64,000 bases of DNA from Cornus controversa (taxonomy: Eukaryota; Streptophyta; Magnoliopsida; Cornales; Cornaceae), in the NCBI GenBank assembly GCA_026545225.1, contig CM048852.1:53141146-53205145 (forward strand). The letters run 5' to 3'. Position 1 is the stretch's first letter; every line of letters starts with the position of its first letter. Position numbers and translations under genes: made by a program. Below the pieces are notes generated by a model. The model saw only the letters and a list, made by a program, of their open reading frames with translations, had not been told where the DNA came from and did not search any database. Below are positions 9,421 to 48,831 of the stretch, piece by piece.

Positions 9421-9492
9421 GGGGCATTCCGAGAATTGAACTCGGGACCTCTCGCACCCTAAGCGAGAATCATGCCACTAGACCAAATGCCC
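9421..9492 (-). tRNA. tRNA-Pro(AGG): tRNA-Pro (anticodon AGG)
   Basis: The minus strand folds into a standard 72-nt cloverleaf. The acceptor stem pairs GGGCATT with AATGCCC and leaves discriminator base C at 9421. The anticodon arm is CTCGC-TTAGGGT-GCGAG, so the loop gives anticodon AGG (A34, later inosine), decoding CCU and related proline codons in cytosolic translation. The T arm carries GTTCAATTC, and no intron or CCA tail is encoded, as expected for a nuclear gene. A CAACAAC stretch lies directly upstream (9493-9499), the CAA motif that marks plant tRNA transcription starts, and a T-rich terminator follows within 20 bases. All parts look intact. Confidence 0.97.
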
Positions 9493-16851: not shown

Positions 16852-16872
16852 ATGGGTTGTCCCCAAAACTAG
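16852..16872 (+). promoter_or_regulatory. Six-codon upstream ORF ending two bases before the LecRK start
   Basis: ATG at 16852 opens a frame reading MGCPQN and stops with TAG at 16870-16872. The main ATG follows at 16875 after two bases. A ribosome that translates this uORF would have to reinitiate almost immediately, or must leaky-scan past it, so it could lower translation of the receptor kinase. That effect is inference; the arrangement is read directly. Confidence 0.6.
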
Positions 16873-16874
16873 CA

Positions 16875-28600: not shown

Positions 28601-30359
28601 ATCTTCAAATTCTGGTATTTTAGAGGGAGAAAAGAAAGAGAAGTGAGAGAGTATATGATATTAAAATGGAATAAAATATAGCATTGCTCGTGGTCGTGGA
28701 GTTCTCGAGTTGTGCTCTCTCATCTTTTTCTCTCTACCGCACTCTCCGATTATTTTCCTGCCACCATCCCCGGCGGCGATGAAGCCAGCCGATAGCAGTT
28801 GCATAATATGAGTGGCGGTCCTCCCGGTTGGAGTGATCCAACCTCCTCATTTCAAAGACATCCATGCTCTGCTGCCACCACAAGATTGAACTCTCCAATT
28901 TATATGTTTATTTTCACTACACAGTACACATTGATCTTGATCTCATTCATGGCCGATGAGCCATTCTCTTCATCTCAACCATTGCCTTCTTCGTTTTCAG
29001 CTTCTACTACCGCTGCTTCGTTGGGTCATTCTGTGATCCAAATCATGAACAAGCTACAAGAAATTTTTGCACAGTTCGGTAGCTCCGTAGCTCATCGTCA
29101 CTTGAGCTCCTTCAGGTGGCAGAGATAGATATATATCTATATCTGCTCTGTCTTTTAAATGCTCTAATTTAGGTGTAATGAAACTTTAAGTCAAACCTTA
29201 TATTGGAATCCTAGAACAGATACGAGAGATGAAGAGAAGAGATAGGAAATGAGAGTGAGAGTTAGAATTTTTCCCACAAAAATTTTGCTTTTCCTTGAGC
29301 TTCTTATTGACTGCAGCATATATAATTGTTTATTTACACCTTTATTTATTCATATATGATATTATAGGTTAAACTGTTGACCTGACAGTTGAATCGATGA
29401 TCTGTGACCTCTTTTTTGGGTGTAGTATGTGGTTTGTAAGAATAATGCTTTTTACATACCCAAACAATTTTGGATGCAATTACGAGATCATTTTTGACTT
29501 TTAAGTAATTGCCGTAGTACAATTTCTCACCGAGCATTTTGATGTTGGATATTAATAATGTCTTTCTTTCCGGCAATTTGAGCTCCCAAAATTCCCTAGG
29601 AAGCTAGAATATGAAGTGTAACCTTCTCCTTAGGATAGGTTCGAATCAGAATATCTCTATAGCTTTAAAAATGGACCATTCTTGAATCTTTTCAGTTCTA
29701 ACCCACTTCTAAACACTTATCTTCCTATTTTCAGTCTCACTTCTCTGCTTGGGTTGAAAGGATTGATGCTCTTCACCATTCTACACTCACCCCTTCCACT
29801 CAAACACCCACTAATGAACAACTGTGCTGGGTAGTGCATTTCCCAAGTTGAACTTCAACAGAAAATATGACAGAACAACCTAATGTAACTTTTCTTTTAC
29901 ATTGGTCATATATGAATGTATCATATATAGGTTTTCTAAAGGAAACGTGAGGAAATTATTTCTTCAGCTGATAGCCTCTTTAAACTGGTATATGGTTTCA
30001 GCTGATAGCCTCTTTAAACTGGTATATGGTGACTGCATCAGAGTAGAATTTTAAATAGTTGGTTGCCTGTTTTTTTGCTTTTTTCCTTTTCCCAAGATTG
30101 TCTTCATTATAAAACATTTGCCATCCAATGGTCATATGAACAGGAAAAAGTGGTGAAAGATGTTGAAGTCAAAGGATTCAACCCAGCATTGATTGTCTTG
30201 ATTCTTGTTGGTGGGCTACTATTGGCATTCCTCATTGGTAATTATGTACTCTACTCGTATGCGCAGAAGACCCTTCCTCCAAGGAAGAAGAAGCCAATCT
30301 CCAAGAAGAAGATGAAAAGGGAGAGACTGAAGCAAGGTGTTTCAGCACCTGGAGAATAG
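25602..30359 (+). CDS. S1FA: S1FA-like small membrane/DNA-binding protein, two exons
   Basis: Exon 1 (25602-25658) encodes [19 protein letters not shown] and ends at a GTACGT donor. Exon 2 (30144-30359), after a CAG acceptor, encodes [20 protein letters not shown] and onward to the stop. Both junctions are phase 0 and the join reproduces the family pattern [18 protein letters not shown]. The 90-aa protein has an acidic N-terminus, a single hydrophobic helix (about residues 33-57) and a basic C-terminus ([20 protein letters not shown], then GVSAPGE) that is almost invariant among S1FA proteins. Spinach S1FA was described as binding a negative element of the plastid ribosomal gene rps1; the helix makes membrane association possible. 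The intron is 4,485 bp, very long for this gene, and contains the DRP3-like fragment at 28949-29128. Confidence 0.88.
25659..28679 (+). other. S1FA intron 1, 5' part
   Basis: No further exon found. Around 28034-28100 there is a single terminal-repeat-like end (AAAATTACACTGATCTCTCC, TGAGGTTTAGTCAAATTACA) resembling the Mutator-like MITEs of the window, without a visible partner end. Open frames of 60-100 codons here are AT-rich noise. Confidence 0.5.
28680..29150 (+). pseudogene. DRP3: Dynamin-related protein DRP3-like 5' fragment inside the S1FA intron
   Basis: From ATG at 28949 the frame reads [20 protein letters not shown], then [26 protein letters not shown]. Plant DRP3 proteins (mitochondrial and peroxisomal fission dynamins) begin with a serine/proline-rich tail followed by LGSSVIPIVNKLQDIFAQLGSQSTIELPQVAVVG. 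Here similarity holds up to LGS, then the frame shifts: in another frame SLELLQVA still echoes STIELPQVA, and after about 29107 similarity stops, before the GTP-binding loop. The frame ends at 29128. The 5' part (28680-28948) looks like a leader and contains a frame [11 protein letters not shown] that I cannot assign. It is a dead exon-1 fragment, not a working dynamin. Confidence 0.65.
29963..30029 (+). repeat. 34-bp exact tandem duplication
   Basis: A unit starting TTCAGCTGATAGCCTCTTTA occurs twice with a period of 34 bases, just upstream of S1FA exon 2 in the intron. The identity of the copies points to a recent event. Confidence 0.9.
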
Positions 30360-30717
30360 ACATTTGAGAGACTCTTGTTTCCTCCTTTCCTTCATGTTGA
30401 GCTGCTGCTATCTTTAGAGTTTTCCATCCATCTACATTGTCTAGTACTGTTGCCGACAAATGGTTGCACTACACAGTAATTATCTCTCTTTCTCTCATCA
30501 TATTGGTAGAGATTGAGAATCATGGTAGTGACTTCTTCTCTCATCCAGAGATGGTTCCTTTCAATAACTGTGACTTCAATATTGAAATGAACAAGTTGAG
30601 ATAATTTATATTAATATTGGAATTTCTTCTTCTTCTTCTTGTTTTTTATTTATTTATAGTCAAGTACTTAAATACGACAGTGTTCATGTTCGAGAATCTT
30701 TTGAGTTTTAAGAAATA
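30360..30717 (+). other. S1FA 3' region
   Basis: Sequence after the S1FA stop codon, probably its 3' untranslated region, with TTCTTCTTC repeats near 30626. No other gene. Confidence 0.5.
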
Positions 30718-30720
30718 TAA

Positions 30721-30929
30721 GGGCCTGTTTGGTTCATTTTTATAAAAACAATTATCAAGAACTCAGAAAAAAGTACTGTTTTCAGAGAACCATGTCTTTT
30801 TTTAATTGAGTTTTCAGAAACAGTTTTCTGAAATTGTCAAACAAACAGTTTTTTTTTTTAAATATAATTTTCAATTACAGTTCTCAGAATATTAAAAACT
30901 ATTTTCAGAAAATTAAATCAAACATGTCC
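30721..30929. mobile_element. Tourist-like MITE
   Basis: Left end GGGCCTGTTTGGTTC and right end AAATCAAACATGTCC are imperfect inverted repeats, and TAA flanks both sides (30718-30720, 30930-30932), the PIF/Harbinger target duplication. The 209-bp interior has inverted TTTTCAGAAA words. A related copy, split by another element, lies at 57286-58110. Confidence 0.7.
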
Positions 30930-30932
30930 TAA

Positions 30933-32040
30933 GACACACAAGCATAAAGTTCTATTTAAAAGACACAAAACAAATGACTATTTACAAGTAGACGGATTTT
31001 AGGAAATTATGTGCCCATTGGGTTCAATTCTGAACGCAATTTGAATTTTATTAAAGAAAAAAAGAAAGAAAACTATCTCTAAAATTAAGCCTTTTTCAAA
31101 TCCAGTTTAGCCTTTTCCGAATTCAGTTTGTTCAAAATAGTTTTTGGAAATTGTAAATCAATCGAATCTTTGAAGTATTTCTATTTTTTAATTTTTTGAT
31201 AAGAGACTGTTCTAATAGAATTTTTTGAAAAAGGACTGAATGTTCAAATTTGATTTTTGTAGCATGTCGTTTTGCAAGACAGCTACCTCTTTTGTCTATA
31301 ACTAAATTTATTGTGTTTAATTCCAATTGTCATGCAACCATCTAAAGAAAACAAAAACCAACGGTTGTGTTTCCCACCCGTGACCTGTAATAAATCTTCA
31401 ATATTAAGCATATTCTCGACTCTGTATCAAATGTCATCTCAACAAAAAAATGAGCTTTGATTAGGAGAATGTCTACCATGCATCCGGTATAAATACACGA
31501 GGTGAATCTTGTCTGTAGACTGTGAGTCCATATGTGTTTAATATATACTAAGTCGTGTACAACACACCCGGGCGGGTGTAACATAAATCTTCTCCTTGAT
31601 TAGAGAAGAAATTATAATCTACATGAACTCCATGTTCCTAGCAAACCAGTTTCATTTTAAGTTCTCTTTAACCTAGAAAAGAAAGCTATTTTAAAGAGAC
31701 TGGATCTGTAGCAACATTCAGTTTTGAAGGCTCAATAACGACATGTTCATGACATTCAGAAACCCTAAAAATGATAATAAAGTAGCTAGCTTTATCTTGC
31801 AATCCTGGCTTCTTTCCAAATCCAAAGAGCAAATCTACAAATACAATGCATTATAAACACAGCAGAGGCAATGGCTTCATTTTCAGAGTAATTTATTTAT
31901 ACATGATTCAGCAAAAGAGTGTGATAGGCATTCAAGCATGGTTCAGAAACTGCAAGTACAGTTTCACAATAACATATCAAACTGATGTATCATAAGAGTA
32001 TAGGCAGGCTAGGACCTGCCATGTTGAGGAAGAAATACTC
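30933..32040. other. Region between S1FA and the CNR8-like gene
   Basis: The two genes converge here. The right part (about 31850-32040) is likely the 3' untranslated region of the CNR8-like gene. Otherwise no gene; minus-strand open frames at 31132-31326 and 31342-31584 match nothing. Confidence 0.5.
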
Positions 32041-35026
32041 CTAGGCCCGATCACGACCCATGGCCTGCTCTCCAGGTGGTGTCAAAACCAGGACAGATTG
32101 GACTTTAAACCCTGGATGAGGAAGCCTACGACGGAGCTCACGACCTTCCTGGCAAAGGGCACATGCATGGCAGAAGATATGAGTTGCAAAGTCGCAAGCT
32201 GTTTCGCATTGCTCACGTTGCGCCTCATCCTCTACAAAGCTGCCACAGCACCCACATGATCTCGCAAGTGCCTCACAGCTACCCTGCTTGAGTCAACCGG
32301 AACCATGAAACACGTACTATAATAGCAAAAACTCTAGGGCAAAGACAATACAAGGAATCACTTGTAAAGAAATAAGAAAAAAAGCAAGTCACTCAGGGTG
32401 GTAAATCAAGTTTCGCCCTCTTGAGAGGCCTTCATCACGTATTAAGTAAACAAAGAATTGAAACCAAGTTGAGAAACCTTGGATGTTGAAGTTAGGCCAA
32501 AAAAGGCCAAAGTTTAATGTAGGGCAAGTCATGGGCTAACAAAGTGAAGAGAAGCTAAACAAGAGTAAGGAAATAATCTATGAACTCCATGTTTTAACTA
32601 AAGGAAACACTCAATAGGCTGCATGTTGATAGAGGATCATGAGCTCTTGAGGATTGTTATACTTATTGATGTGAACCTCACCATAGTCTATGGAGAAAAG
32701 TGGCAATAGTAGTACACTTATTGACTGGTTCGATGAGTTGATTCAGCAAGCAAGTTTAAATATGTATGCACTGTCCACGTTTTAAGTTTTCTATCAATAT
32801 TTTACAACAATGGAACTGCAGACTGCACATGAATAGCCAATGTCAAAGACTTTTAGGATTTATGTCGCTTAACCACAAACAAATGTATTTTAAAAGTTAT
32901 AGGAGGTTAAGGACATCTACATATTTTCACTTTTAGGAATCCATTCAAACAAATCAAGAACAGTATTTTAACTCTGCCAATGTTTTTCTATTCTTGAAAG
33001 CAAAGTTGACTAAACTTAGCCAGATGCAAGATGTAAGGATTGGCTCTTCATTATTAGAAAATATTATAGCATGTTCCAGTGATGAAAGTTCTAATATCAG
33101 TTAAAGAGAAGCACAGAACCACTGTTTAACAAAATTAAAGTACTCACACAAAAAAAACTCAGAATCTAAACAGTCAACCCATGCAAAGTGAAGTCATTTG
33201 AAAACTCAAGTACCTTTAAAAAACACATTAAAACTGACAGTTTACATAAGATGAGGACGGGACCAGAGCTTAGAAATGGAAAATATAAACTTGCCTCTAG
33301 GTTGAACTTCCGGCGGATAGCTGTACGACTAGGATATGAGAACCATGGTGCGAGGCAGTTCCAGCCGAAAAAAGCTTTTCCAATCAGGTATAGACCAGAA
33401 TATGGCAAGCAGTGATTTGTGAAAGTCCCAGGCCGAGATCCGAGCCTCTCAGCATTGCTTCCATACAGCACACAAGGGGCCACACTTCCAAGGAGACCTA
33501 CCAAACATCAAGATTATGAATAGAAAACGAAGACTGAGAAGCAAATGAAGAATAGTGATCAAAATGAAATGAATGAAATTGAAATATCAAATATCATCCT
33601 TGCCTTAATCCCGTATGAATGGGGCCGGCCACATGAAATTGAAATATCAAAACCCAAAAGTAGAGTAGCAAGAGAGAGAGGATTGATAAATCAGTTGATA
33701 ACAACTGATCCAACATTTTAAATTTGCTTCAATTGAATAAACTTAGAAAATTGTTCTACAAATACAGGATCCCTCACAAAAGCTAACTAATACCATGAAA
33801 CAAATAGGCAACTAAAAGTTTGCCCACAAAGTCAATTTGATTTTTGGCCAACTATGCACATAAAATACTAACACTGTGGATCAGTTTAACAAACACAAAA
33901 CCCAAGTCGGATGCACATCTCCCACTGATCATGTGTGAATTTAATCATATCAAAGCTGCAACTTGGTAGCAGCTGCTACCGAAGGTGACAAGTTTTTTGC
34001 AAATAACAGATCAAGTGAAACAATGACTCAAACATAGTGCAGTTCTCAAACCACATAAATAACTAATCCAGTATGTAACCCTTGGTACCCATGCTTACGA
34101 ACTCTGTATCACCCAGGAAATGATCCCATAAAAAAGTATGGAGTGAATGGCTCTTCTATATATCAATCGCTAATACACTGTTCTATATATATATGTGTGT
34201 GTGTGTGTGGTCCAGGTTTGAAAATTGAGTTTTCTGTTATCATAATGATCCTATCACAACCGCATGACTCCCCATTTGGATTGATCATCATTCTAATCAC
34301 TAGAATTTAGTTGCCAGCAACTTTAAAAAATAATTAACAAATAAATTAGCATAAAATTCAACAATTAATTAATATTTCTCAAAACAACTAATCAACAATA
34401 ACAAATAAGCATGTAATTCATTAAACTCAATCTTTGAGCGAAAACAAATGATGTCAATGTATTAAAAGAAACTCACAAACTTCAAAATCACTGCAACAGA
34501 ACTCATCGTTGCAGCCAAGACGAGCACAAATACATACACAACACATATACATACATCATATATATGTATATATGCATGAAATTCATATAGCAGTAGCACA
34601 ACACAGATCAATAATTAATACTAGAATCAACAGATCAAACCAGGACGTAAAAACCAAATGGCCATCACAAATAAACATGTAATTCATTAAACTTAAGCCT
34701 AGTAGGTCAAATAAACGATACAAACGTATTAAAGAAAACTCACAAACTTCAAGATCACTGCTACAGAACTCATCGTTGCGGCCAAGACAAGCGAATAGGC
34801 CCGAGTCCCACTGAGTCCGACGCAAAGGCTCGCCCACCACGCTCCCGTGCCCTAACGGCACCCCATCAGCGGTCCACCAAAAGGGAACGTCGGAAGGCGG
34901 CGCAGGCGATGGTTTCGTGGCCGCATACGGCTGAACAGCGGTGGCCGGATCGGCGGGTTTCTTCTCGTCGTCTACCTTGGGTTGCTGCTTGATCAGGAGG
35001 GGGTTGGATTCCTCGGAATTAGCCAT
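32041..35026 (-). CDS. CNR8: PLAC8-family protein, cell number regulator 8-like, three exons
   Basis: Exons are 34744-35026, 33295-33497 and 32041-32283 (minus strand), joining into a 242-aa protein. Exon 1 gives MANSEESNPLLIKQQPKVDD, a proline/alanine-rich stretch, WWTADGVPLGHGSVVGEPLR and ACLGRNDEFCSSDLEV. Exon 2 gives CLLGSVAPCVLYGSNAERLG with the hydrophobic segment CLPYSGLYLIGKAFFGWNC and FSYPSRTAIRRKFNLE. Exon 3 gives GSCEALARSCGCCGSFVEDE through PPGEQAMGRDRA. This is the cysteine-rich PLAC8 layout of plant CNR8-type proteins; relatives affect organ cell number or divalent metal transport at the plasma membrane. Intron 1 is phase 1 with GTGAGT. Intron 2 uses a GC donor (GAG then GCAAGT, 33294-33293) and a CAG acceptor, phase 0. 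Every residue across both joins fits the family. Confidence 0.92.
34397..34795 (-). repeat. Duplication of the exon 1 end and donor site inside intron 1 of the CNR8-like gene
   Basis: Segments 34664-34795 and 34397-34526 share long blocks, including the last 50 bases of exon 1 and the GTGAGT donor. The intronic copy (34477-34526) still resembles exon 1 codons (NDEFC.SDFEV) and keeps an intact donor at 34476-34475. Offset is about 267 bases. Using the decoy donor would add a stop codon, so the outer donor at 34743 is the functional one. Confidence 0.8.
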
Positions 35027-35700
35027 GAAGACGAAGTAAGAACAGAAACCCAGAAGAGGGAAGAGAGAGAATGTGGATTTGGAACCCTAGAAATGTAGAA
35101 TCAGAGAACTGGGCGAAGAGATCAATCAAAGGTCAAAGGTCTCTGTTTTGTAAGTTTGCTTTTTGTTTTTTCTTTTTCTTTAAAACAACAGCTGAAAAAA
35201 CTAGTAATTCTTTGGTTTCATGTAAATTGTCATTTGATTAACTTAAACAGTAGGAGTAGCAAAGATAAGATAAGAAGGAAAGAAAGAAATAAATTGTGAT
35301 AGTAAGGTTTAACCAACCATATAATTTGTCCCCTTTGGTAGCTAAATATCTATATAATATGGAGTGCAATTTAATCATAAACAACATCACATTAATTATG
35401 GAATTGTTTGAGAATATTATACTCCTAATTTTTTCTTTATTTCTCTAAATTAAATTGTGCAAGCAAAATGTAGCAATCTTCCTATTAGCAATTCATAGGG
35501 TGGGGACTAGCCGACTAGGGAAGATAATCTTTATTAATGTTGAAAATGACAATTCATCAAAGTTCAAAATTACACAATTTCAACTATTATAATATTTGTA
35601 CTTTGAAAATATTAAAAATTTGTTCACCTGAAAATTATGGTAAATATTGATTAAAAGTAGACAATTTAATTTTAAGTGTAAATATCACTTTTGCACTCTT
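35027..35700 (-). other. Upstream region of the CNR8-like gene
   Basis: Contains the probable leader (35027-35110) and promoter. No separate gene seen. Confidence 0.4.
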
Positions 35701-36640
35701 AAGGTTTGAATTTATTACAAAACTCCAACTTTGCCATGCCCTGTAAAGCAACCAACTCCAACTTTGCCATGTAAAGCAACCATCATCTTCAGCCACCAAT
35801 CTCAATGTCGAAACAACCATGTCCGAACCATTGCTGAGCCACCTATTGGAACACCATTGCCACCATGTTTACTGAAATGTACGGAGTCGTGTGATGATCA
35901 CAGAGCAAATTATAGGCTCACTGTGAAGCTTCATTCCACTGCCATTCTGGCCATACTGAGAAGACCTACAACCAGCCACCTATGCCACCACAACCGAGCT
36001 CCTCTTCGTCGTCATCCCGATCACCACCATGGCCCAACCTCTATCAAACATCCATCACCATTTCCACCACGAACACACCCATCACCGATTCCATCAAGCT
36101 CCATTGCGAAGACCCGTGTCTTCACCATCTTCAATAGCACAGAGCCACCACCTAAGTTTCTCACCACCGTCATCATTTCCTCCATGAAAGACCCACCAAG
36201 TGTAAGGGAGAGAAACGTTGAAATTGTGATTAGTAAATTTTTAGCATCGTTTGTTTTTTCTTTTTATATATAAATTGATCTTTACAAAGATCTCTATATT
36301 CTTTCCAATATATATATATATATGTAAAGTATTGATTAATTTTCACAATTGAATTATAATCTAGTAGAGACGAGAGAGAAGGAGAAAGAAGAGAAAAAAG
36401 GAGAGAAAGTTGGGGTATGTTAGTATTTTATGTAATTTTTTAGGTTAAATAGGTTGTTTGATAAAGTCAAAGGGCATACAAGTGTTTTTGCACAGTGACA
36501 GAGTTGTCTATACATGATTTGGGGTTACTTTAATAGACGGTGCATAACGTTTGGGTTTATACTCACACTATAATCAAATTTTCTCTTTGTGTGAAATAAG
36601 TTCAAACCATAGGAAATGTTAGTGATATTTACCTTATATT
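35701..36640. other. CCACC-rich repeat-like DNA
   Basis: The segment 35731-36273 holds a 180-codon frame rich in His, Pro and Thr from CACCA-type words. It lacks a recognisable domain, and it contains a U5-like fragment, so I treat it as non-coding, possibly the interior of a Mutator-like element. Confidence 0.4.
35872..35914 (+). pseudogene. U5: U5 snRNA 5' fragment
   Basis: The 43 bases align to the first 45 bases of the U5 locus at 39360 (shared TGAAAT.TACGGAG.CGT, TGATGA.CACA.AGC.AA.TAT), then similarity stops before loop I. There is no promoter, loop I or Sm site, so it is a fragment only. Confidence 0.5.
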
Positions 36641-36929
36641 TAATTAGGGTTGGGCTTAAATTAAAATGCCAATAATTCGAACCAGAATTGTAATATTATT
36701 TTTATACATATTTTTTATTTTAAATATATCATATATAATATTCAAATTATGATAATCTTTTCTTCTCAATTTTCTTTATTTAAATTTTAATTTATTGTAT
36801 GTTAACATTTTGGAGAATTCATTTCTTAAAAATTTGTTTGTAATTTTTTAAAAATATGTATCAAGTTCTTAATTTTATTTTATGTTTAGGAGTAATTTAA
36901 TGTGAAACTAACTAAATATTATTTAAAAT

Positions 36930-38050
36930 TTTTAATATGGAGATTAGTCATATAGATAACTCGAGTTTAAAAATTTAAGAATAATTGGGCTCGGATTGAG
37001 TAGTTAGGGTTGAAGACCGGATTAGAATTAAACATTTTACATGTCAGTGAACCATCCACTCCCGAACAAATGAGTTTGATGTTGAAGAGAGAAAGAGAAG
37101 GCTAAGTTGCAATGATCCTGAAGTCATTTATGTTCCCACATCGAGATAAACACAAACCGCTTTCATTTAAATATAATGCAAGCACCTAAACATGTGAAAG
37201 TCACATAGCCGTGTGGTATTGTGCGCTCGCCACTCAAAGCGGCATTTGCTTATTTTTGAAGGGATGTTTCCTCGAAAAATTTCCCTATATTCAATGTTCA
37301 ATCTTTCTAGCAAAATATATATAATCTACTGCTTCTGATAAAAAAATAAAAATGTCATGAAAAAATGACTTGGATTTGAAAAGTCCATGAATAAATCCAT
37401 TGTTGGGAGAAGGGAATTCACTGAAATACCTTAAAATAAAGTATAATTGGAGATTGATTATAAATTACAGCATTTACGACAATGAAAATCATTTCTAACA
37501 ATGATGGAGTTCTGTGTTTTTTTTTTACATGTTTACATTTTTTCTTATTAAATTAATATAAATATTCATTAATATATGAATTAACACCTGAAAATTGTCA
37601 ATCCATGACTCTTGCTGCAATTATAACATGTTTTTATCATGCATATAGTGATCAAATCTTGTAAGAGTATCTTCAATTGATGCTTCAAATTTCATACTTC
37701 AAAATGTGGCAAATTGGAATATATGGTATTTTGGTATACTCTACCCGATGTCAAATTTATTAATTTATTGCGATTATAAAATACATTTTAAAATAATAAT
37801 AATAACTCATAGATTAAAATAATGAGAAAAATTCATTTGATATACTATTTTTTGATATGCTAAATTTGACATACTTGATAATATGCCAAATGCCAAGTAA
37901 GAATTTTAGATATCAGTTTAAGAAGTTTTTGATGTCAAAAGTAGTAGTTGAAATGTCACGTATGATTTGACATATCTGTTGAAAATTCTCTAAATATTCA
38001 ATTCTCTTATTATCACTAAAATTTATTAAAGAATGTACTCGTTAGTTATC
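36930..38050 (+). repeat. Segmental duplication, left copy (contains U5 locus 1)
   Basis: Collinear blocks recur at 39780-43165, among them GATTGAGTAGTTAGGGTTGA, ACATTTTA.ATGTCAG, GTCATTTATGTTCCCACATC, ACAATGATGGAGTTCTGTG and TGTCACGTATGATTTGACAT. This copy lacks the two large insertions of the right copy. Confidence 0.85.
37133..37286 (+). pseudogene. U5: U5 snRNA locus 1, loop I deleted
   Basis: The upstream USE-like box TTCCCACATCG (37133-37143) and a TATAAT box (37172-37177) are kept. The RNA region (about 37196-37286) lines up with locus 3 but lacks about 46 bases covering the whole loop I hairpin, the part that touches exon ends in the spliceosome. The Sm-like stretch TTATTTTTGAAGG is kept. 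Without loop I it cannot act as U5, so it is a pseudogene even if transcribed. Confidence 0.8.
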
Positions 38051-38643
38051 ACTAAAATTTGATTATCAATAACAATTCAGAAAACTTTAAAGAAGTGTAA
38101 TTATCTTGTTTCTCAATTGCTTGAGTGTCCTGCCTTAATGCTCAACTGATCCTTTTATTTATAACCTCTTGGATCATACCCAAAAGATGTTGAATATTTT
38201 CCTTCTTCCCTAAGGCATAGTTCATCATCATTTTCCTTAGCTTGAAACCACCTAGGAGGTCAAGTGCTCTCCGTAACTTCAAACATGGAGTAAGCTAAAC
38301 ATTTTGCATACAACTTCATTACTGGAATTGATTTAACCAATACAAATTTATTGCTTCCATGTGAATGTGATGCATGGTTCAGTAAAAAAATAGAGGGTAG
38401 GTGGATGTGGTACTTTACTGGCTAAATGTTCAAGCGTTTTATTTATAGGACACATTGCTTAAAATTGAAGTCAATGAACATGGTTAATATAGCAACTGAC
38501 AAATGGTCCAAGAATGAATGCACAAAAGAACTTCTAAACTGCCATTAGAGCTGAATTTAACTTTATTGCAGAGTCTGAAGATCCAATTTAGGGGTAAAGA
38601 GGTTCCTCAAAGTTCTTTACTAAATGACCCTTTTTTTTAAAGT
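38051..38643. other. Intergenic DNA, nothing recognised
   Basis: No gene or defined element that I can support. Confidence 0.5.
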
Positions 38644-38783
38644 AATGATACAGATATCAAATTCGATAATTTTTGAATGAATTTTTATAAGTAGAGGATG
38701 ACATCACGATGACGTCATGATGATGTCACACCACACTTACATAAATTCATTCGAAAATAATCAAATTCGGAGGATGTATCATT
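38644..38783. mobile_element. Palindromic MITE-like element
   Basis: AATGATACAG… and …TGTATCATT close a 140-bp imperfect palindrome. The arms share ATCAAATTCG, GAATGAATTT and GATGACATCA words, with a TGACGTCA palindrome-like centre. Flanks are T-rich, so no target duplication can be fixed. Confidence 0.6.
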
Positions 38784-39287
38784 TTTTCCTTTTTTTTTAG
38801 ATGATGGTGGTATTGGACACATAAAATACCCGTTTCACATATATGGAACAATTACCAAAAAAAAAAAATCTCCAGAGTGGTTACAAAGGGATTCTTGATT
38901 TTGAGGTATTCGAGGGAACTGACCATTTGAATAATTTGACTTTGAGGTACTCAAGGGGTGTGCCCGAGTTAAGTTTCAATATAAGAAGACAAGATAAAAT
39001 GGGGATCATTTCAAGCTAGAGCACAAGTCATCAAGAGATTCCATGATCAACAAGATACACTGAGGTCTAAGCTGTATTATTGAATTTTCTGCTTATTTAC
39101 ATCAGTTAACAAGTTTTATTTTTTCTTTTGATGAACTCTGTTATAAGCCAAAATTTTATTAGAAGCTGTTGGTTAAGAGAGCTAGTGTGATATTAAAAAT
39201 GGTGAGAGAGAGAGATGCAAAAGCCATTGGTTAAAGTTTAGAGAGAGAGAAAGAGTGAGAGATGAATGAAGCCTGAAGTCATTTATA
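38784..39287. other. Upstream region of U5 locus 2
   Basis: Poly-A and GAGA-rich stretches, no gene. The last 60 bases lead into the USE box. Confidence 0.45.
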
Positions 39288-39340
39288 ATCCCATATCGAA
39301 AAGAATAAGTGAACACGAGCCACCCTCGTGGGTATATAAT
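39288..39340 (+). promoter_or_regulatory. Pol II-type snRNA promoter (USE and TATA) of U5 locus 2
   Basis: ATCCCATATCG (39288-39298) matches the plant upstream sequence element RTCCCACATCG at ten of eleven bases. TATATAAT (39333-39340) follows after 34 bases. In plants a spacing near 33-34 marks RNA polymerase II snRNA genes and about 24 marks Pol III genes, so Pol II is expected, as for U5. The RNA start should lie about 30 bases further on, near 39360. Confidence 0.85.
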
Positions 39341-39359
39341 GGAAGCACCTATATTTGTT

Positions 39360-39491
39360 GAAATTTACGGAGCCGTCTGATGAGCACACAGCGAACTATT
39401 CTTTCGCCTTTTACTAAAGAATACCGTGTCCTCGTCACTCATAGCGGCATACGCCTATTTTTGGAGGGGTGTTTCCTTCGGGAACTACACC
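39360..39491 (+). ncRNA. U5: U5 spliceosomal snRNA, locus 2 (looks intact)
   Basis: U5 is the snRNA of the U4/U6.U5 tri-snRNP whose loop I aligns the two exons during splicing. The invariant loop I GCCTTTTAC lies at 39406-39414, closed by the stem TATTCTTT/AAAGAATA. A lower stem pairs TGATGAG with CTCGTCA. The Sm-protein site ATTTTTGG is at 39457-39464. A 3' hairpin follows: GGTGT/ACACC below and TTCC/GGAA above, capped by a TTCG tetraloop. Eleven bases after it, AGTTAAA (39502-39508) fits the plant snRNA 3'-end element AGTNNAA. Both ends of the RNA are estimated to within a few bases. With promoter, loop, Sm site, 3' hairpin and 3' box all present, this is the best candidate for a working gene. 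Confidence 0.9.
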
Positions 39492-39501
39492 AACAATTCT
39501 A

Positions 39502-39508
39502 AGTTAAA
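39502..39508 (+). terminator. snRNA 3'-end box of U5 locus 2
   Basis: AGTTAAA preceded by CA-containing sequence agrees with the plant U-snRNA 3'-end formation element CA(N)3-10AGTNNAA. Confidence 0.7.
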
Positions 39509-39870
39509 TATTTTCTTTCTTATACAATATTTCTACTCAGAAAATATTAAATTTCTTAACCTAAAAATTATTTTTTATTTAAAGGAAATATTGATTTGAC
39601 GTTAACAAATCATAGTTAGGTCGATTTTGTTATGATATATTATGGGTAGGGTGTAACTTGTTATGTTATGATATATTAAGGATAGGGGTCTTGTAAGTTC
39701 AAAAATCTCAACTCAAATTTAAATTTAATTATGATTGAATTTGAGTTGAAGTGCCATTGTATTAGAATTGTAATGTTATTTTAGTCATATAGATAACTTG
39801 AGTTTAAGATTTTAAGAACGAGGATTGGATTGAGTAGTTAGGGTTAGAAATTGGGTTAGGATTGAATATT

Positions 39871-40817
39871 GGGTAAAATACCAGTTACACCTATTCAGTT
39901 TAGACAATATTTCAACTAAATCCCCTTTAGTTTCAATAATCTCGACTACACTCCATATAACTAACGTTCGTCAAATGTACTAGTGAATTTACGATTTTAC
40001 CCATAATTAATATATTTAATTTAATCAATAAAAGTTGGTGATGCTAAAAGATCTAATTGCCCTCCCTTGTATTGAATCAATTTTTCCTCCCTAACCTCCC
40101 CTCTCTCTCTAACTCTCCCTCTCAGTTTCTCTTCCCCTCTCTCTCTCCATTGCCTACCAACCACCATCGCCAGCTGGAGCACCATCGTATATCACCTCTG
40201 TTTCCCATTCTCTCAGAAGTGGGTTTGTTTCAGTCCCCCTATTTTCTCCTATTTCATTCTTTATCCTCTTTCTAGGGTTTTGGTTTCTCTCTCTAAATTC
40301 CTAATCATCCATGGTGGCTGCTGATATAGAGTTCAGATGCTTTGTCGGTGGGCTCGCATTGAAGAAATACCCTAATCGAAAGTCCATTTTGCTAGGTCTC
40401 AAAAATCGAATCTGAACCAATTCGGCTTTGTAAACCATTGACATAGGCATGGCAGCTCCTCCATGGTGACGGTGGAATTGCAGGCTGTTTAGTGGCAATG
40501 AAGAGATATTGTGTTGGGTCTCGGCTTTGGACAGTGGTTTTCATCGGTCTGTGCATGTGGTGGGCCTTCAATGATGGAGTTGTTTCGTGACAATGAAGAG
40601 GTTGGGTTGATGAACAATGGGTTGGTGCAGATGGATTTGTTATGAGATGGTTCTGAGGTGATGAAGATGGTGGATTGATGATTCTTAGTAGTTGTCTAGT
40701 GAAGCTTGGTCAATGGGATAATGGTGGTGGCTGGTGAGCTTCGATTTGCTGTGGAAGATGATGAACAGTGGTTATGTGCATATATATATATATATACATA
40801 CATACATATATATATAT

Positions 40818-40859
<42 letters not shown>

Positions 40860-41197
40860 AACAAATAATAGTATATAGATATAAATATATCAACACATGT
40901 ATGTAGCATAATAATACATAAACGAAAGTGATAGAGGCATTGTTGTACATTTATTTCCATAAGTTGAGAATATTTTTTGTAATAGTCCATTGTTTAACGA
41001 GATCAAAGATGTCATTTTATGTATGAGAAGGGCAAAAATGTCCATTTATATACTTTTCTTCCGTTGACGTCACACTAATGGAGGGAACAAATCGATACGT
41101 GAACCCAAAATTAATGAGGTGTAGTCAAGATTATTAAAACTAGAGGGGATGTAGTCAGGATATTGCCTAAACTGATTAGTGGAAGTGGTATTTACCC
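39871..41197. mobile_element. Mutator-like non-autonomous element, 1.3 kb
   Basis: Terminal inverted repeats of about 100 bp (GGGTAAAATACCAGTTACAC at left; the inverse of …GGAAGTGGTATTTACCC at right) are flanked by TTGAATATT and TTGAACATT (39862-39870, 41198-41206), eight of nine bases equal. The interior has a CT-rich, 5'-leader-like block (40080-40290) and GGTTGATGAA-type repeats but no recognised gene piece, so capture of host DNA is possible but unproven. A TA/CATA microsatellite lies at 40781-40857. Confidence 0.8.
40781..40857. repeat. Complex (TA)n(CATA)n microsatellite
   Basis: Alternating TA runs and TACATACATA blocks; frames through it give tyrosine-isoleucine runs on both strands. 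Confidence 0.95.
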
Positions 41198-41361
41198 TTG
41201 AACATTTTATATGTCAGATTGGACGAGTGAACCGTTCACTCACAGACGATGAAGTCTAAGATGTAATGAGTTAACCATCCATTCACAGACAAACCACTTA
41301 GATGTTGAAGAGAAAGAGAGAGAGAAAAGGCAAAGTTGCAATGGCCCTAAAGTCATTTATG

Positions 41362-41413
41362 TTCCCACATCGAGATGGATAAGCAAACACAAGCCGCTTT
41401 CATTTATATATAA
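41362..41413 (+). promoter_or_regulatory. Pol II-type snRNA promoter of U5 locus 3
   Basis: TTCCCACATCG (41362-41372) differs from the USE consensus RTCCCACATCG only at the first base. TATATATAA (41405-41413) follows after 32 bases, close to the Pol II snRNA spacing. Confidence 0.8.
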
Positions 41414-41432
41414 TGCAAGCACCTAAAGATGT

Positions 41433-41563
41433 GAAAGTCACAGAGACGTGTGGTGAGCACAAAGCCAAATATTCTTTCGCCTTTTACTAAAGAATACCGT
41501 GCGCTCACCACTCAAAGTGGCATACGCCTATTTTTGAAGGAATGTTTCCTTGGGAAATTTCCC
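41433..41563 (+). ncRNA. U5: U5 spliceosomal snRNA, locus 3 (variant or early pseudogene)
   Basis: Loop I GCCTTTTAC (41479-41487) and its stem are identical to locus 2. The lower stem GTGGTGAGC/GCTCACCAC is a perfect nine-pair helix whose bases differ from locus 2 on both sides, so pairing is kept. The Sm site is ATTTTTGA. The 3' hairpin differs from locus 2: TTTCC/GGAAA with a TTG loop replaces the TTCG-capped stem. The 3'-end box is weaker (TGTTCAA for AGTNNAA). It may be an expressed variant or a copy that has begun to decay. Confidence 0.75.
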
Positions 41564-41715
41564 TACAATTTAATGTTCAATTTTTCTGGTAAAATATTTA
41601 TAATTTTTTGCTTCTTTTAAAATTTCAAATTAATGAGATTAGAAGAAATAAATAAAAATGTCATGAAGAAATGACTTGGATTAGAAAAATATAATTGGAG
41701 ATTGATTATAAATTA

Positions 41716-42636
41716 AAGTAAATTGTAAAACAACTCTCATACTTTACCCATTTTGCAAATCCCTTGAAGTTCAAAAAATTCCCTAAACTTCGTAAAATGG
41801 GCAACAAATGTAATCAAAAATGAAAAATTACAAAACTTTGCAAATCCCTTGAGGTTCAAAACCCCCCCTAAACTTCATAAAATGGACAACAAATGTAATC
41901 AAAAATTACAAAACTATCCATTGGTGGAAATTGTCAAATTTCTTTTTTTCTTTTTGCATTTTACTTTAATAATTTTATAGACAATGAATTTTAATGCACA
42001 AATAAAAAAACATATGAACTACCAATAAACGTAACTTTTGGAGTTAGATGTAATTTTCTAAACTTCACTAAACATATTTTAGATTTGATTTTGGTGAATC
42101 TTTTGATATATTTAATTTATAAGATTTTACAAAAAATGTATATAAAAAGAAAAAAAATGCTATTGTTGGAAAATAAAGCAATAAACATATATAAATTCAA
42201 GAATTAGATGTAACAATTTAGAATTATAATATATATAGTATAGATTCATTTATTTGTATTTAAAAATTAAAAAATATATATAATTTGCGGACAATGTTAA
42301 CCACTAATTTATTATGAAGTAGAAGGGAAATTTGGTAGAAAACGTGTTTGAATGTAAATATAATTCTTTGTCAACAGTCATATAGTTTAGAGAATATTAG
42401 TAATTTATTTTTTAATTTATAAGGTGTTAAAATGTATATAAAATATAAAAGAATATATAAAATTTTACTCAAATCTTAGGGGTAAAGGGTATTTTTGAAA
42501 TTTTTATTTTTCATTGATGGAGAGGGGGCTCTTTTGCACAAAATGTGATAGTTAAATGGTATTTTGAACAAAAAAAAATTAGGTTTTTTTTTTTGTAAAA
42601 TGGGTAAAATATAGAGGGATTTTTTGCATTTTACCC
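41716..42636. mobile_element. Mutator-like non-autonomous element, 0.9 kb
   Basis: Identical nonamers TATAAATTA flank it (41707-41715, 42637-42645). The ends (AAGTAAATTGTAAAACAACT … TTTTGCATTTTACCC) are inverted repeats of about 45 bp sharing TTTACCCATTTT. Near its left end an 86-bp unit (AAATCCCTTGA.GTTCAAA… ) is tandemly duplicated (about 41755-41925). No coding capacity. Confidence 0.8.
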
Positions 42637-43165
42637 TATAAATTACAACATGTACAACAATGATGGAGTTCTGTGTTTTTTTTTCCATGGTTATATTTTT
42701 TCTTTATTAAATTATTATAATTATTTGTTAATATATGAATTAACACCGAAAAATTGTCAATCCATGACTCTTATTATAACATGTTAGCATCTCCAACCGA
42801 TGGTTTAAATTTCATAATGATGTGGCAAATTGGAATATGGTATTTTGGTATACTCCACCCGATGCCAAATTTATTAATTTATTGTAATTATAAAATACAT
42901 TTTAAAATAATAATAGAAACTCATAGTTTAAAATAATAGAAAAAACTCATTTAACATATATATATATTTTAATTAAATTTGACATATTTGATAGTATGTC
43001 AAATGCCAAGTAAGCATTTGTGGTATCACTTGAAGGAGTTTTTGATTTCAAAAGTAATTATTACAAATGTCACGTATGATTTGACATATTGGTTAAAAAT
43101 ACTCTAAATATCAATTATCTTATTATCACTAAAATTTATTAAAGAAGGTATTCCCTAGTTATCAC

Positions 43166-44280
43166 CAAGTAAAAACAAAATTGCTACCTCTTGCGCATGT
43201 ATATACAGCTTCACAGACACACCAAAAATAGAGTGTCCAACAGAAGTAAGATATACCAAAGTAGGAAGAACACAAATAGAATCAACTTTCAAACCATTAC
43301 AATCAACATTCTTTATTCTTTTTTTTTTTTTCTTTCTTACTTTCATCTTTTTCTTGAATAGCAAATATAGAGATAATTAAATGATTTCCTTACTTAGATT
43401 TCTATTGAAATTTATATAAATATCATTTTCTAGACTGACATGAATGTTAAATGAAAATTTAAAAAAAAAAAAAAAGTAACCTAATCAAATATATTATTTT
43501 GATGTTCCAAAATTTTCAACCCATCAAAAAAATATAAATATCTTAGATGTTTTTTCTTTGAAAATATTATGCAAAATTAAACGTAAAGATCTCCAAAAGG
43601 CACTACTAAATTACAAACATATATAGATATTTCAATGATCATGATTTATGATTTAAAATTAATGCTAGAAAAAAAAAAAAAAAGAGGAATCCTAGAAGCA
43701 ATCATCGATAATTGATATGATCAATTCTTAATTTTGACAAGCAAAATAAAATAAAGAGTTAAACATTAATGGGAGAGAGAGGGGGACAAAAAACTATTTC
43801 ATAATTGAAAGGGTAATGGTGGTATTTGAGAAAAAATAATAATTTATTTATTTATAAAGAAGTCATGGTTAGAAGTGTGATTTTCTTTATTATTGGAGTG
43901 CAATCTTAAAAAATGAGAGTGCAGTAGTAAAAAATGGAGAAGGTATTCATTGTGCATAGCTGTGCACTAGACGCATCGGAACTATTAGTGCGCTAAGTGC
44001 ACCCTGCATGTGTATTCGTAAAACAATGAGTATGCAAATATCCCATCGTTTCACTGGATCATACTTGTAACAATTCAAACTGCAAATGAGTCCCACAATC
44101 TTCATTTTCAAAAGTTTTGATATAAAATAGTAGAACACAAAGACTATTCATTGCATTCCTATTTAGTCTCTGGTCTACACCACTTCTTATATAAAAAAGA
44201 AAGGAACTCAACTGAAATAAAACTATAGCTTCAACCAAACTAATGCCAACACAATCACTCCATTACCAAAACAAAGTTTC
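43166..44280. other. Intergenic DNA with a relic of the 11823-type TIR family
   Basis: At 43770-43925 the sequence resembles the right half of the element at 11823-12699 (GAAAGGGTAAT.GT.ATTTGA, AATAATTTATTTATTT, GGAGTG). No gene is seen. The part near 44160-44280 may be 3' untranslated sequence of the peptide gene. Confidence 0.45.
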
Positions 44281-44472
44281 TTCATCCATGTATTTTCATC
44301 CCCTGCAAAACAAAAAAGAAAAATTCATAAAATAAAAATATGATAAATACAGCTACCAATTCGAACATAATCACTTCCAAACCTGATCTGACCAATCTAA
44401 AAAAAAAAATGTTGCACCACAATACTACCTAAATCGGCATTCTTTTATTACTCTCCAAAATCAAAACTTTAC

Positions 44473-44855
44473 CTATATAACACATATATATAAATTTGAT
44501 GCATATGATAAAGGTTCTTTAGTTCTTACACTTCCTCCTCCTGCATCACCAGCTCTTAAACCTTTAGATTTGCGATGTGTTTTTGGATGACCATGAGGAT
44601 GTGGAGGGATTCTGTGGGAGTGAGTCTCAGGACCTCTATAATCGATATCATAAATTCCTGAATCCATATTTAACACATCCAATCCTCCTAAGTAAAAACA
44701 ATACAAATTAGTCAGCCATGTACTAGTAGTATATGATAGATATACTAAGAGCTTACAAGGGTATTGTACAAACCTCTTGAAAGGCAAGGCACGGCGAGGA
44801 GGAGGAGGAGGAGGAAGAGAAGAATGATGGTGGTGACTCTAGGCTTGAACTCCAT
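44473..44855 (-). CDS. Small secreted peptide precursor, two (or three) exons, family not recognised
   Basis: Exon 1 (44774-44855) encodes MEFKPRVTTIILLFLLLLLL and AVPCLSR, a clear signal peptide. After a phase-1 intron (donor GTTTGT, acceptor TTACTTAG) exon 2 (44473-44687) continues GGLDVLNMDSGIYDIDYRGP, then ETHSHRIPPHPHGHP and KTHRKSKGLRAGDAGGGS. The total is 98 aa if translation runs to the stop at 44473. A good alternative donor (AGT then GTAAGA) after GGGS could join to exon 3 near 44301 (acceptor TTTTGCAG), giving a shorter tail GMKIHG. The Asp-Tyr (DIDY) motif followed by Pro- and His-rich sequence resembles tyrosine-sulfated plant peptide precursors in general layout, but I cannot place it in PSY, CIF or RGF. 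Function unknown. Confidence 0.6.
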
Positions 44856-45243
44856 GGGCATTCAAAACTGAGCTGATCACAAGTGAAGCTAGCTAGCTAG
44901 CTACTTGTTTTGGATATATGTGGATGGAGGAGAGAATGAACGGGTAAGTCATGGGGGGGTTCACGGAAGAAGCATGGGATATCAGTTAAGGTAATGCTCA
45001 GCTTTTGGCAATTGAAAACCGTCAGCATCAACACAGCAATTAGTTGCAAGGAATTGATGTGGATGTCTTGTGTTGGAACATTTATGTGGTGTAACCACAA
45101 CCAGACTTTAGGTAATCACTTTTTATTTATGTTCTTTTCTTCTCGATAGTTCCCTAAGAATCATTCCTAGATAATGTATAGCTAGCTTGAACTGACAAAC
45201 CATGAAATCAGGGGTTGAGTCACAGATCGAGCAATCAATTTAT
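44856..45243 (-). other. Upstream region of the peptide gene
   Basis: Probable leader and promoter; contains an AGCT tandem run at 44887-44900. No other gene. Confidence 0.4.
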
Positions 45244-45597
45244 AGGGTCTTGGACTGCAAATGAACTGAATTGTTCATGAATTGCTGGGACTCGGCTCGT
45301 TTAAGACTTGGCTCAGTCGAGTTCGATTTTTAAACTCATTTAGTAAAGAGCTAATTCTGAACAGTACTACTGAACTCAGCTTGTGTAGGCTCGTAAACAT
45401 AAGCTCGTGTATTTCAACGTGAGCCCAAATCGAGTCAGAACATATTTTTGTTATTAAATGAACCGAGACCCAACTTTTCAAAATAATGACAAGTTGAGCC
45501 ATAATTCAACTTTTTGAGCTCATTACAATTCTGAATCAAGTCCACAAACGAATTAGCTGAATCCGAACCGACTCAGGTCAATTCATTTGCATCCCTA
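45244..45597. mobile_element. hAT-like MITE
   Basis: GCAAATGAACTGAATTGTTC near the left end mirrors GGTCAATTCATTTGCATCCC at the right end. The interior is rich in GGCTCG, GAGTTCG and AGCTCG words, the usual composition of plant hAT MITEs. A target duplication could not be confirmed. Confidence 0.55.
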
Positions 45598-46628
45598 CTT
45601 GAAAGGTGAAAATGTTGAATTTATACAAAATAATAATGAATGTTAAGTATATCTTCAAACTTTTTGTTCCCGTACCACGTGTAGGCGGGACCAGTTGGTT
45701 ATGGGCTTTGAATGGTCCTTGTGTGTATTATTGAAGATGATGTGGAGGGGCATCCCCATTTGGCTGGAGTTTAACTCATACAGCTACCCTCTTTTCCTCT
45801 CTGTTTCTTTCATCATAAAACTCTTTGAATTCATAGTGTCTCAAGTCACAACATGCCAGGACATCTTATGTAGACTTGTGCTTATCATGTTATATATGGA
45901 AATTAAATTCTGAAAGATGGATAATATTTTATTATAGATTGGTGCAACCCATTTATGGTTGGGAATTGAATGGGCTGTTTATATATATATATATATATGA
46001 GAGAATCCACATGCAGTGGTGGTGGTACGTATTATCATTCCTCAGAAGTTTGACATGATTACAAACTGCAAAGGAAAATAGTTGATCTAATTTATAATCC
46101 CCTGGTTTTATATAATTTTAATCATTTATGCTTCACCAATCTCAAGTTTGGCAATGTAATAAAAATAGTATTTTCAAACATGCAATAAAACTAATTTTTT
46201 GAACTAACTTTCTCAAATTCTAATTACGACGCCCAAACATGAACAATACTATATACAACTGGCGACTGCCTACGAGGAGTAGCAGAGTGCATGAATAGAT
46301 TTTTTTGTAGGATAGTTTGACATTGAATTATTTTTAATGGAACTTTACAAATATTATATACTTCTCTTTATCATATATATATATATATATATATAGTATC
46401 TACGTACATATGTTATATGCGCGTCCCCGGGTTCTATCACCTGTTGGGACTAGTACTATGTGTGATTTCATTTCATAGTCCTAGATTTACTGTATTAGCT
46501 TTACCATGCACAGTCACGATGAGGAAACTCAGATCACGTGAGTCTTACAGCAGAGCTCACGTGATTAAGGGCTGGGTTAGTGCGTACTCATTCTCTCTCA
46601 TCCTTTTTGCTCACATTATTCGTCTATA

Positions 46629-46659
<31 letters not shown>

Positions 46660-47136
46660 TAAAGGACAGAAGACACGAATATTGCAATATTGTGTGATTT
46701 TTTTATTTTTTACAAAATATTGTGTGATAACTTGCCGAGAAATCTTGAAAAAAACAGGAATTGGTGATAAAGGCTTGTTTGTCCACTCAATCTCTCAACC
46801 ATCCATGATAGTGAAGTGATAATATCATATTTTCAAGTGAAACGACGTTATATAGCCAACTGACCCTTTTGATATAATAATCTATTTATGCTGCAACCAA
46901 ATGACCCCTCAATCTCTGATAAAGGCAGACCAGGCTCGACATTATACTCGGAGCAAACTTTATTGCGACTTGGGCTGGGTCCATTTGGGTCTTCATGAAT
47001 AGGATTTATAGTATGTCATGTTGGGTACAATATTAATGAAATTACAAGAATAGATTAAAGCACTCTCTAGTGTTAATACCTTGGTTTAGAGAGAGAAGGC
47101 TCAGTGCTTCACAAGTATTTGCATAAAGTGATTTTG
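45598..47136. other. Intergenic DNA, no gene supported
   Basis: Contains AT microsatellites at 45979-45998, 46373-46396 and 46622-46650. A less AT-rich patch with CACGTGAG words lies at 46420-46590 but has no recognisable product. Confidence 0.5.
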
Positions 47137-47717
47137 CTTAAGCTCTGGTTTTGGAACCAAATCCTTTGGGATTTGGATTTGAAAAGGTAATTGGAATTGA
47201 AATTGTAATGAAATTTCATTTATGTGTTTGGAACAAACTGGATTTAAAAGGTCATTTTTAGTTTGGATTTAAAATGAAATTTGGAATTAAAATAATATTA
47301 TACCATCTTTACCCTGGTTAAAATAATAAATGAAAGATTTATTTTTTTTGTTAAATATATTTCAAAAATAATATACTTGGTAAGGGTGGGTGTAATAGTA
47401 TGCTGATCAATGTAGATAGAATTACAAAATAAATAAAAAGGGTTTTCAGGATGTATTTCTAATGTTATACAGAAAGTTTGATATAAGATCATCAAAAAAG
47501 ACGTTAGAAGATATTTACAAGCGTATATAAGGAAATAGTGTTATGAGAATTTGAAATTCCATCAAATTCCACCATTTTTTATTGGATTTGAAACAGCAAC
47601 AAAACGGTATTTGAAATCCCGTGAAAACCAAATCCCATTTATAATTCCGTAGTTCCAAACAACATAAATTCCTTCAAATCCCGTTTCCAAATCCAAATCT
47701 TAATGTTCCAAACACAG
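47137..47717. mobile_element. TIR element with TTTGGAAC ends
   Basis: GGTTTTGGAACCAAATCC and GATTTGGATTTG near the left are mirrored by TTTCCAAATCCAAATC and GTTCCAAACACAGC at the right. The repeats extend over about 80 bases in imperfect form. No coding capacity. Confidence 0.5.
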
Positions 47718-47718
47718 C

Positions 47719-47949
47719 GGGCTCCGTTTGTTCCAACATAAAATATTTTTTAAAAAATATTTCTAAAATATCAAGTGTTTGGTAGCCAACTATTTAATAT
47801 TTTACAAATTGGTTGCAAAAATTCAAACATTTTGGTGTAAATATATTTTACAGGTATAACATTTTTCTTTTTAAAATATGTAATCAAACACCAAAAAATT
47901 TTAAAAATATTTTCCAGAAAATATTTTACGTCGAAACAAACAGAACCTA
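47719..47949. mobile_element. Small MITE abutting the previous element
   Basis: The left end GGCTCCGTTTGTTCCAACAT with AAAATATTTT and the right end AAATATTTTACGTCGAAACA with AACAGAACC form an imperfect inverted repeat of about 35 bp. It directly follows the element at 47137-47717 and may have inserted into its end. Confidence 0.55.
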
Positions 47950-48831
47950 AATTCAAAATTATATTCACTTCTGTCATTCTAAAATTCAGTATCACATCAA
48001 GTAACAACTATGAAAACAAATGCATAATAACACCTAGAATGAAAACCATCACAGTAGGATTAAGTAGGAACTAAATTAAGTTCGCACATTAACCCTAGAA
48101 TGAATGAAAGCCATCACAGAGGACTCGAGTCACTGCCCAAAGCTTCTCAAAGGGCTTAGTGATCAATTGCCTTCAAAGTTAAATTTAGAGAGATAATTAT
48201 GATATATCTATACACACACACACACACTAGGGTGTCTTGTTTAATAAGAATAAGTGAAATTAAAGAGTTAGTTTTAATATGGGTCATGAATAGGATGGAA
48301 GAGGCAAAAACACAAGAACCCGCCATAGCTCCATCTATCCTTTATTTGTCTTGCTGCGAAAACAACCACCAAGCACTACAGATTTATTTAATACACACTA
48401 CTTTCTAAAATTACCCCTAGTGATTTCAAACCAACTTCTGGTATTCAAGTCAGTGTAACCCAGTAATTAACTTCATAATGTGAGTGGACCAAAGAGTGTT
48501 ATTCTCTCCCAACAAGAAACCCAAAAGGTTCAACTAAGGTTTCATGGCCTCTTTTCTAGCACTCATAAAGTGCTTAAGTCAATTATGAATCAATCATTGA
48601 AGAAAGTTAGAAAAATTCCAGACACTGGAAAACATATGCACAAAAATCGACAATGTGATATAAAATTTGATGTAATACCATCAGCATGTTCGAGGTGACA
48701 AGTGTGTATTCAGAAACAGGCGACGTGCTTTGGTTATGCCCCAACATGTGTTGTGTACACAGAATCATATGGCATCCAATGCTTGCCCGTTTACTAACCT
48801 TCCCGCTAGCTTGCTTTGTAGATAAGAACTG
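47950..48831. other. Region downstream of the POLAR-like gene
   Basis: The right part is probably POLAR-like 3' untranslated sequence. A (CA)n run lies at 48213-48227. No other gene. Confidence 0.45.

What the first reader, a model, noticed from the sequence alone, without database searches (positions are those of the whole stretch)
39288..39508. A U5 snRNA gene with every expected part, in a cluster not visible to protein-based annotation
USE, TATA at Pol II spacing, loop I GCCTTTTAC, Sm site, TTCG-capped 3' hairpin and 3'-end box AGTTAAA are all read directly and in the right order. ORF-based annotation would leave this stretch empty. It anchors the reading of the neighbouring copies.
Basis: partly seen in the sequence, partly recalled or inferred. 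Interest (0 to 1): 0.75.

Follow-up and report, generated by a model that had tools for sequence, protein, structure and literature searches.

The report
Ordinary plant U5 splicing RNA gene
This stretch is a normal-looking gene for U5, one of the small RNAs that cut introns out of messenger RNA; it is one of many U5 copies in what looks like a plant genome, in a small group with a weaker copy and a broken one.

Summary
Rfam's U5 model matches 39371-39486 (+) at 80.2 bits, cut-off 40. USE, TATA, loop I, Sm site, UUCG-capped 3' hairpin and 3' box lie in the stated order. The host genome (772 Mb, unnamed; a plant by inference) holds 17 U5 model hits above cut-off; this one ranks 13th, and 16 are full-length. 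Those 16 are conserved at the USE, TATA, RNA body, Sm site and, less so, the 3' box, with drift elsewhere; stem pairs covary. Nearby, copy C (RNA 41444-41560) is full-length but weaker. Copy A (37133-37301) has lost loop I and is a pseudogene; its USE-TATA gap fell from 34 to 26 bp. A, B and C share a clade with two copies elsewhere on the contig. Multi-copy U5 genes with USE and TATA, one pair in tandem, are described in Arabidopsis (PMC545797, passages). So this is an ordinary new member of a known kind. Expression could not be tested, and the gene has four private bases in the USE and RNA body, so activity is likely but not shown.

The parts
39288..39298 (+). USE (upstream sequence element) of copy B, ATCCCATATCG
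   Evidence: 1 mismatch to RTCCCACATCG. The T at 39294 is private to this copy among 16.
39333..39339 (+). TATA box, 34 bp after the USE (Pol II-type spacing)
   Evidence: 14 of 16 full-length copies have a gap of 33-35 bp and a TATA with at most 2 mismatches to TATATAA.
39367..39491 (+). predicted U5 snRNA (ends inferred, about 125 nt)
   Evidence: RF00020 hit 39371-39486, 80.2 bits. Conservation across 16 copies rises at 39367.
39406..39414 (+). loop I GCCTTTTAC
   Evidence: Invariant in 16 of 16 full-length copies
39457..39464 (+). Sm-binding site ATTTTTGG
39468..39491 (+). 3' hairpin with UUCG tetraloop
   Evidence: The TTCG loop is seen in this copy only among the 16 rows.
39494..39508 (+). 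3' box CA-N6-AGTTAAA
   Evidence: Matches CA(N)3-10AGTNNAA (consensus from PMC5079582)
41362..41580 (+). copy C: full-length, diverged U5 with USE (41362-41372), TATATAA at 34 bp and model match 41444-41560; 3' box degraded (TGTTCAA, 41574-41580)
   Evidence: RF00020 73.5 bits
37133..37301 (+). copy A: U5 pseudogene, 41 alignment columns including loop I missing; USE-TATA gap 26 bp
   Evidence: No U5 model match at E up to 1 or, alone, up to 0.1.
39871..41197 (.). element with inverted terminal repeats between copies B and C (Mutator-like by its 9-bp duplication, an inference)
   Evidence: Arms of 66 nt, 82% complementary; flanks TTGAATATT / TTGAACATT, 8 of 9 alike. Without gaps only 27 of 90 outermost bases agree.
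41716..42636 (.). second element with related inverted ends, downstream of copy C
   Evidence: 9-bp flanks TATAAATTA on both sides; ends compared by eye

Best explanation
Copy B (39288-39508) is a genuine, probably active nuclear U5 snRNA gene of a plant. Inferred from established knowledge of plant snRNA genes: the USE and a TATA box four helical turns apart direct Pol II; the transcript is cleaved upstream of the 3' box; the RNA takes up Sm proteins at ATTTTTGG and joins the U5 snRNP, where loop I holds the exon ends during splicing (this last role recalled). Shown here: the sequence parts, their spacing, the family's conserved fold, and conservation across the genome's own copies. Not shown: transcription.
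For: RF00020 at 80.2 bits against a cut-off of 40. USE-TATA gap 34 bp, as in its paralogs: 14 of 16 at 33-35 bp with at most 2 TATA mismatches; the two exceptions are L022 (gap 33, 3 mismatches) and L024 (gap 37, 2 mismatches). Mean majority fraction over 16 copies: upstream 0.32, USE 0.94, spacer 0.55, TATA 0.85, TATA-to-start 0.52, RNA body 0.92, Sm 0.90, 3' hairpin 0.50, 3' box 0.75, downstream 0.43. In 15 of 15 comparisons with B the RNA is more alike than promoter or flanks. 97.8% of 368 cells paired; 5 of 23 pairs with changes on both sides against a shuffled mean of 2.2, reached by 1 of 500.
Against: B ranks 13th of 17 model hits. It has a private USE base (39294) and three private bases in the RNA body (39377, 39389, 39430; the last makes a C.C mismatch in the long stem); only three of the other 15 copies have more in the body (L022 9, L024 4, C 4), though four others also have a private USE base. 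Conservation and covariation are properties of the family, not proof for this copy, and relatedness alone can raise the shuffle result. No expression data were available.
Confidence: 0.8

Rival explanations
1. Copy B is a silenced or decaying U5 copy: nearly intact by sequence but no longer transcribed, or its RNA no longer stable.
For: Low rank among the genome's copies; one private USE base and three private body bases; a C.C stem mismatch; neighbours A and C are degraded.
Against: The named boxes are intact; loop I, its stem (8 of 8 pairs) and the Sm site are unchanged, while the downstream flank is only 14-52% identical to those of the other 15 copies.
Confidence: 0.18
2. Chance resemblance, or a non-U5 element.
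For: Single motifs such as the 3' box pattern are common by chance (51 distinct boxes on the + strand).
Against: Model E-value 4.4e-12; the promoter pair is rare by chance (2 hits in 40 simulated windows); 16 full-length copies in the genome.
Confidence: 0.01

Closest known systems
Arabidopsis U5 snRNA genes (ASRG survey, PMC545797; passages seen)
   Same: Multi-copy (14 in Arabidopsis), all with USE and TATA, predicted fold like human U5, one tandem U5 duplication
   Different: Here 16 full-length copies plus truncated ones were found (lower bounds); 14 of 19 copies lie in four local groups (A included); this group has two inverted-repeat elements in it
Rfam RF00020 (U5 spliceosomal RNA)
   Same: Whole model 1-117 matched above cut-off
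   Different: One C.C pair in the long stem; 4-nt insertion before and 4-nt deletion within the 3' hairpin relative to the model

Membership tests
U5 snRNA (RF00020) | Covariance model match above gathering score | tested here: met
   80.2 bits against 40
U5 snRNA (RF00020) | Loop I GCCUUUUAC on an intact stem | tested here: met
   Invariant in 16 of 16 copies; 8 of 8 stem pairs never vary. The single-sequence energy fold does not show this stem.
U5 snRNA (RF00020) | Sm site followed by a 3' hairpin | tested here: met
Plant Pol II snRNA gene | USE and TATA about four helical turns apart | tested here: met
   34 bp between them; consensus and spacing rule from PMC9845283, passages
Plant Pol II snRNA gene | 3' box CA(N)3-10AGTNNAA | tested here: met
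   39494-39508; rule from PMC5079582, passages. Weak alone: 51 distinct boxes on the + strand of the window.
Plant Pol II snRNA gene | Transcription by Pol II and presence in the U5 snRNP | not testable with these tools
   No expression data held

The most novel reading that the evidence does not exclude
The contig-8 clade (A, B, C and the pair at 39.05 Mb) is a distinct U5 isoform group with its own long stem and a GATATAA/TATATAA-type box (otherwise seen in 1 of the 12 full-length copies outside the clade), kept for a special tissue or condition; and copy A's 8-bp promoter deletion has moved it to Pol III spacing, so a dead U5 may make a short Pol III transcript.
Probability: 0.06. Interest if true: 0.4.

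Novelty: new member of a known kind. Interest (0 to 1): 0.12.

Why it matters
It adds a well-supported gene that protein-based annotation would miss, and shows U5 copies at different stages of decay in one small array. It does not change any picture of splicing or of snRNA genes.

Tried and rejected
Further snRNA genes around the cluster: a permissive Rfam scan of 30000-50000 gave the two U5 hits and 9 microRNA matches, each below its family's cut-off. Exact USE matches at 10148 and 10470 suggested more snRNA genes, but they lie in the two LTRs of a miniature retrotransposon. Loop-I-like sites elsewhere in the genome with 1-2 mismatches: 6 sites, 2 of them fetched: L029 scores 30.6 bits, below the cut-off, and L028 has no hit; the other 4 were not looked at. 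Fold energy as a test was not decisive. Four ORFs were given to Pfam and 1 of 4 matched. The paper on the Arabidopsis U5 gene (PMC338915) is not held, so nothing is taken from it.

Full report
Observation. The stretch 39288-39508 (+) reads as a plant U5 gene from end to end. The Rfam U5 model matches 39371-39486 over its whole length at 80.2 bits (cut-off 40, E 4.4e-12 for the 64-kb window). A second full-length match lies at 41444-41560 with 73.5 bits, and the window's only other match above cut-off is a tRNA.

Anatomy. USE 39288-39298, 34 bp, TATATAA 39333-39339, RNA from about 39367, loop I 39406-39414, Sm site 39457-39464, 3' hairpin with a UUCG loop 39468-39491, 3' box 39494-39508. The USE consensus, and the rule that Pol II snRNA genes have USE and TATA four helical turns apart and the U6 and U3 genes one turn less, come from passages of PMC9845283. 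The 3' box rule comes from passages of PMC5079582. A USE (at most 1 mismatch) followed after 32-36 bp by TATATAA (at most 1 mismatch) occurs at 2 sites in the window on both strands, copies B and C; 40 simulated windows gave 2 sites in all. Taken alone, the 3' box pattern (51 distinct boxes on the + strand) and the fold energy (z -1.90) prove nothing, and the minimum-energy fold of the single sequence pairs the loop I region differently from the model.

Genome. The window is part of contig 8 of an unnamed 772-Mb genome in 61 contigs; that it is a plant is inferred from the snRNA promoter type and a lectin receptor kinase. The U5 model finds 17 places over its cut-off, 16 of them full-length; this copy ranks 13th. 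The exact 21-base loop I string occurs 18 times: at those 17 places and in one more truncated copy, L027 (35 bits, below cut-off). Up to 2 mismatches there are 24 matches against 2 for the reversed control pattern. The tool calls its counts lower bounds. With copy A that makes 19 copies. Fourteen lie in four local groups: contig 1 near 73.07-73.10 Mb (5), contig 4 near 64.95 Mb (4), contig 8 near 39.05 Mb (2), and this one (3). The other 5 lie apart.

Selection. Sixteen full-length copies were aligned with their flanks. Mean conservation is high in the USE (0.94), TATA (0.85), RNA body (0.92) and Sm site (0.90), intermediate in the 3' box (0.75), and 0.32-0.55 elsewhere, the 3' hairpin included (0.50). 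In 15 of 15 comparisons with B the RNA is more alike than the promoter or the flanks; with copy C, for example, 0.82 against 0.68 and 0.52. On the RNA alignment the model's 23 stem pairs are formed in 97.8% of 368 cells. Five pairs have changes on both sides (shuffled mean 2.2, reached by 1 of 500); the count of further pair types is less striking (13 against 11.2, reached by 25 of 500); sliding the partners drops pairing to 30-48%. The 8 pairs under loop I never vary. Against B: a private USE base and three private body bases, more in the body than in 12 of the other 15 copies, one of them giving a C.C mismatch in the long stem, and a middling model score. My odds of an active gene were lowered from 0.82 to 0.80 after this last count.

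The cluster. Copy A (37133-37301) aligns with C over promoter and 3' part but lacks 41 columns with loop I, and its USE-TATA gap is 26 bp through an 8-bp deletion. The U5 model does not report it at permissive settings. Copy C keeps loop I and the Sm site but has four private body bases, in the basal stem and inner loop among others, and a degraded 3' box. In a tree of 17 rows A and C pair (97/93), and A, B, C and the two copies at 39.05 Mb of the same contig form one clade (100/99); the order inside is unresolved, and 7 of 14 inner branches are open. Two elements with inverted ends and 9-bp flanking duplications (8 of 9 and 9 of 9 alike), as Mutator-like elements leave (recalled), lie between B and C and behind C.

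Comparison with what is known. Passages of PMC545797 report 14 U5 genes in Arabidopsis, all with USE and TATA, and a tandem U5 duplication. The present gene is of that kind in every feature tested. Its function in the spliceosome is inferred from membership. No RNA data could be consulted.

Verdict. The least ordinary thing met on the way is outside the finding: a miniature LTR retrotransposon whose LTRs carry an exact USE with a TATA-like box at Pol III-type spacing (see Noticed in passing).

Noticed in passing
window 10058-10629: A miniature LTR retrotransposon (two 250-bp LTRs, 72-bp interior starting GTTGGTATCAGAGCC, 5-bp flanks TTTGT) whose LTRs hold an exact snRNA USE, ATCCCACATCG, with TTATATG 25 bp further on, close to the spacing of Pol III snRNA promoters. 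The genome search lists 66 matches to the LTR, each at least 92% identical, two of them clearly partial (lower bound). The USE plus 25-bp arrangement is in at least one LTR of 30 of 30 fetched loci, which were the best matches, include the window's own and overlap in five pairs. Three paper searches showed no report of it among the titles listed (15 of 43, 15 of 202, 3 of 3), and the main text of PMC10886601, on small-RNA-derived LTR elements, does not hold the terms snRNA, TATA or upstream sequence element. An snRNA-type promoter in an LTR would be unusual, but TTATATG is a weak TATA box and likeness among young copies is no proof of use.
   Followed up: partly
window 37133-37301: U5 pseudogene A: an 8-bp promoter deletion changes the USE-TATA gap from 34 to 26 bp, from Pol II-type towards Pol III-type spacing, and the old Sm site TTTTT could act as a Pol III stop (inference).
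   Followed up: partly
window 39871-41197 and 41716-42636: Two elements with inverted ends and 9-bp flanking duplications inserted in the U5 array; no stop-to-stop frame of 110 aa or more lies in either.
   Followed up: partly
window 16860-19031 (+): Uninterrupted frame for a legume-lectin receptor kinase (Pfam Lectin_legB and Pkinase).
   Followed up: no
window 9421-9492 (-): tRNA-Pro (AGG) gene.
   Followed up: no
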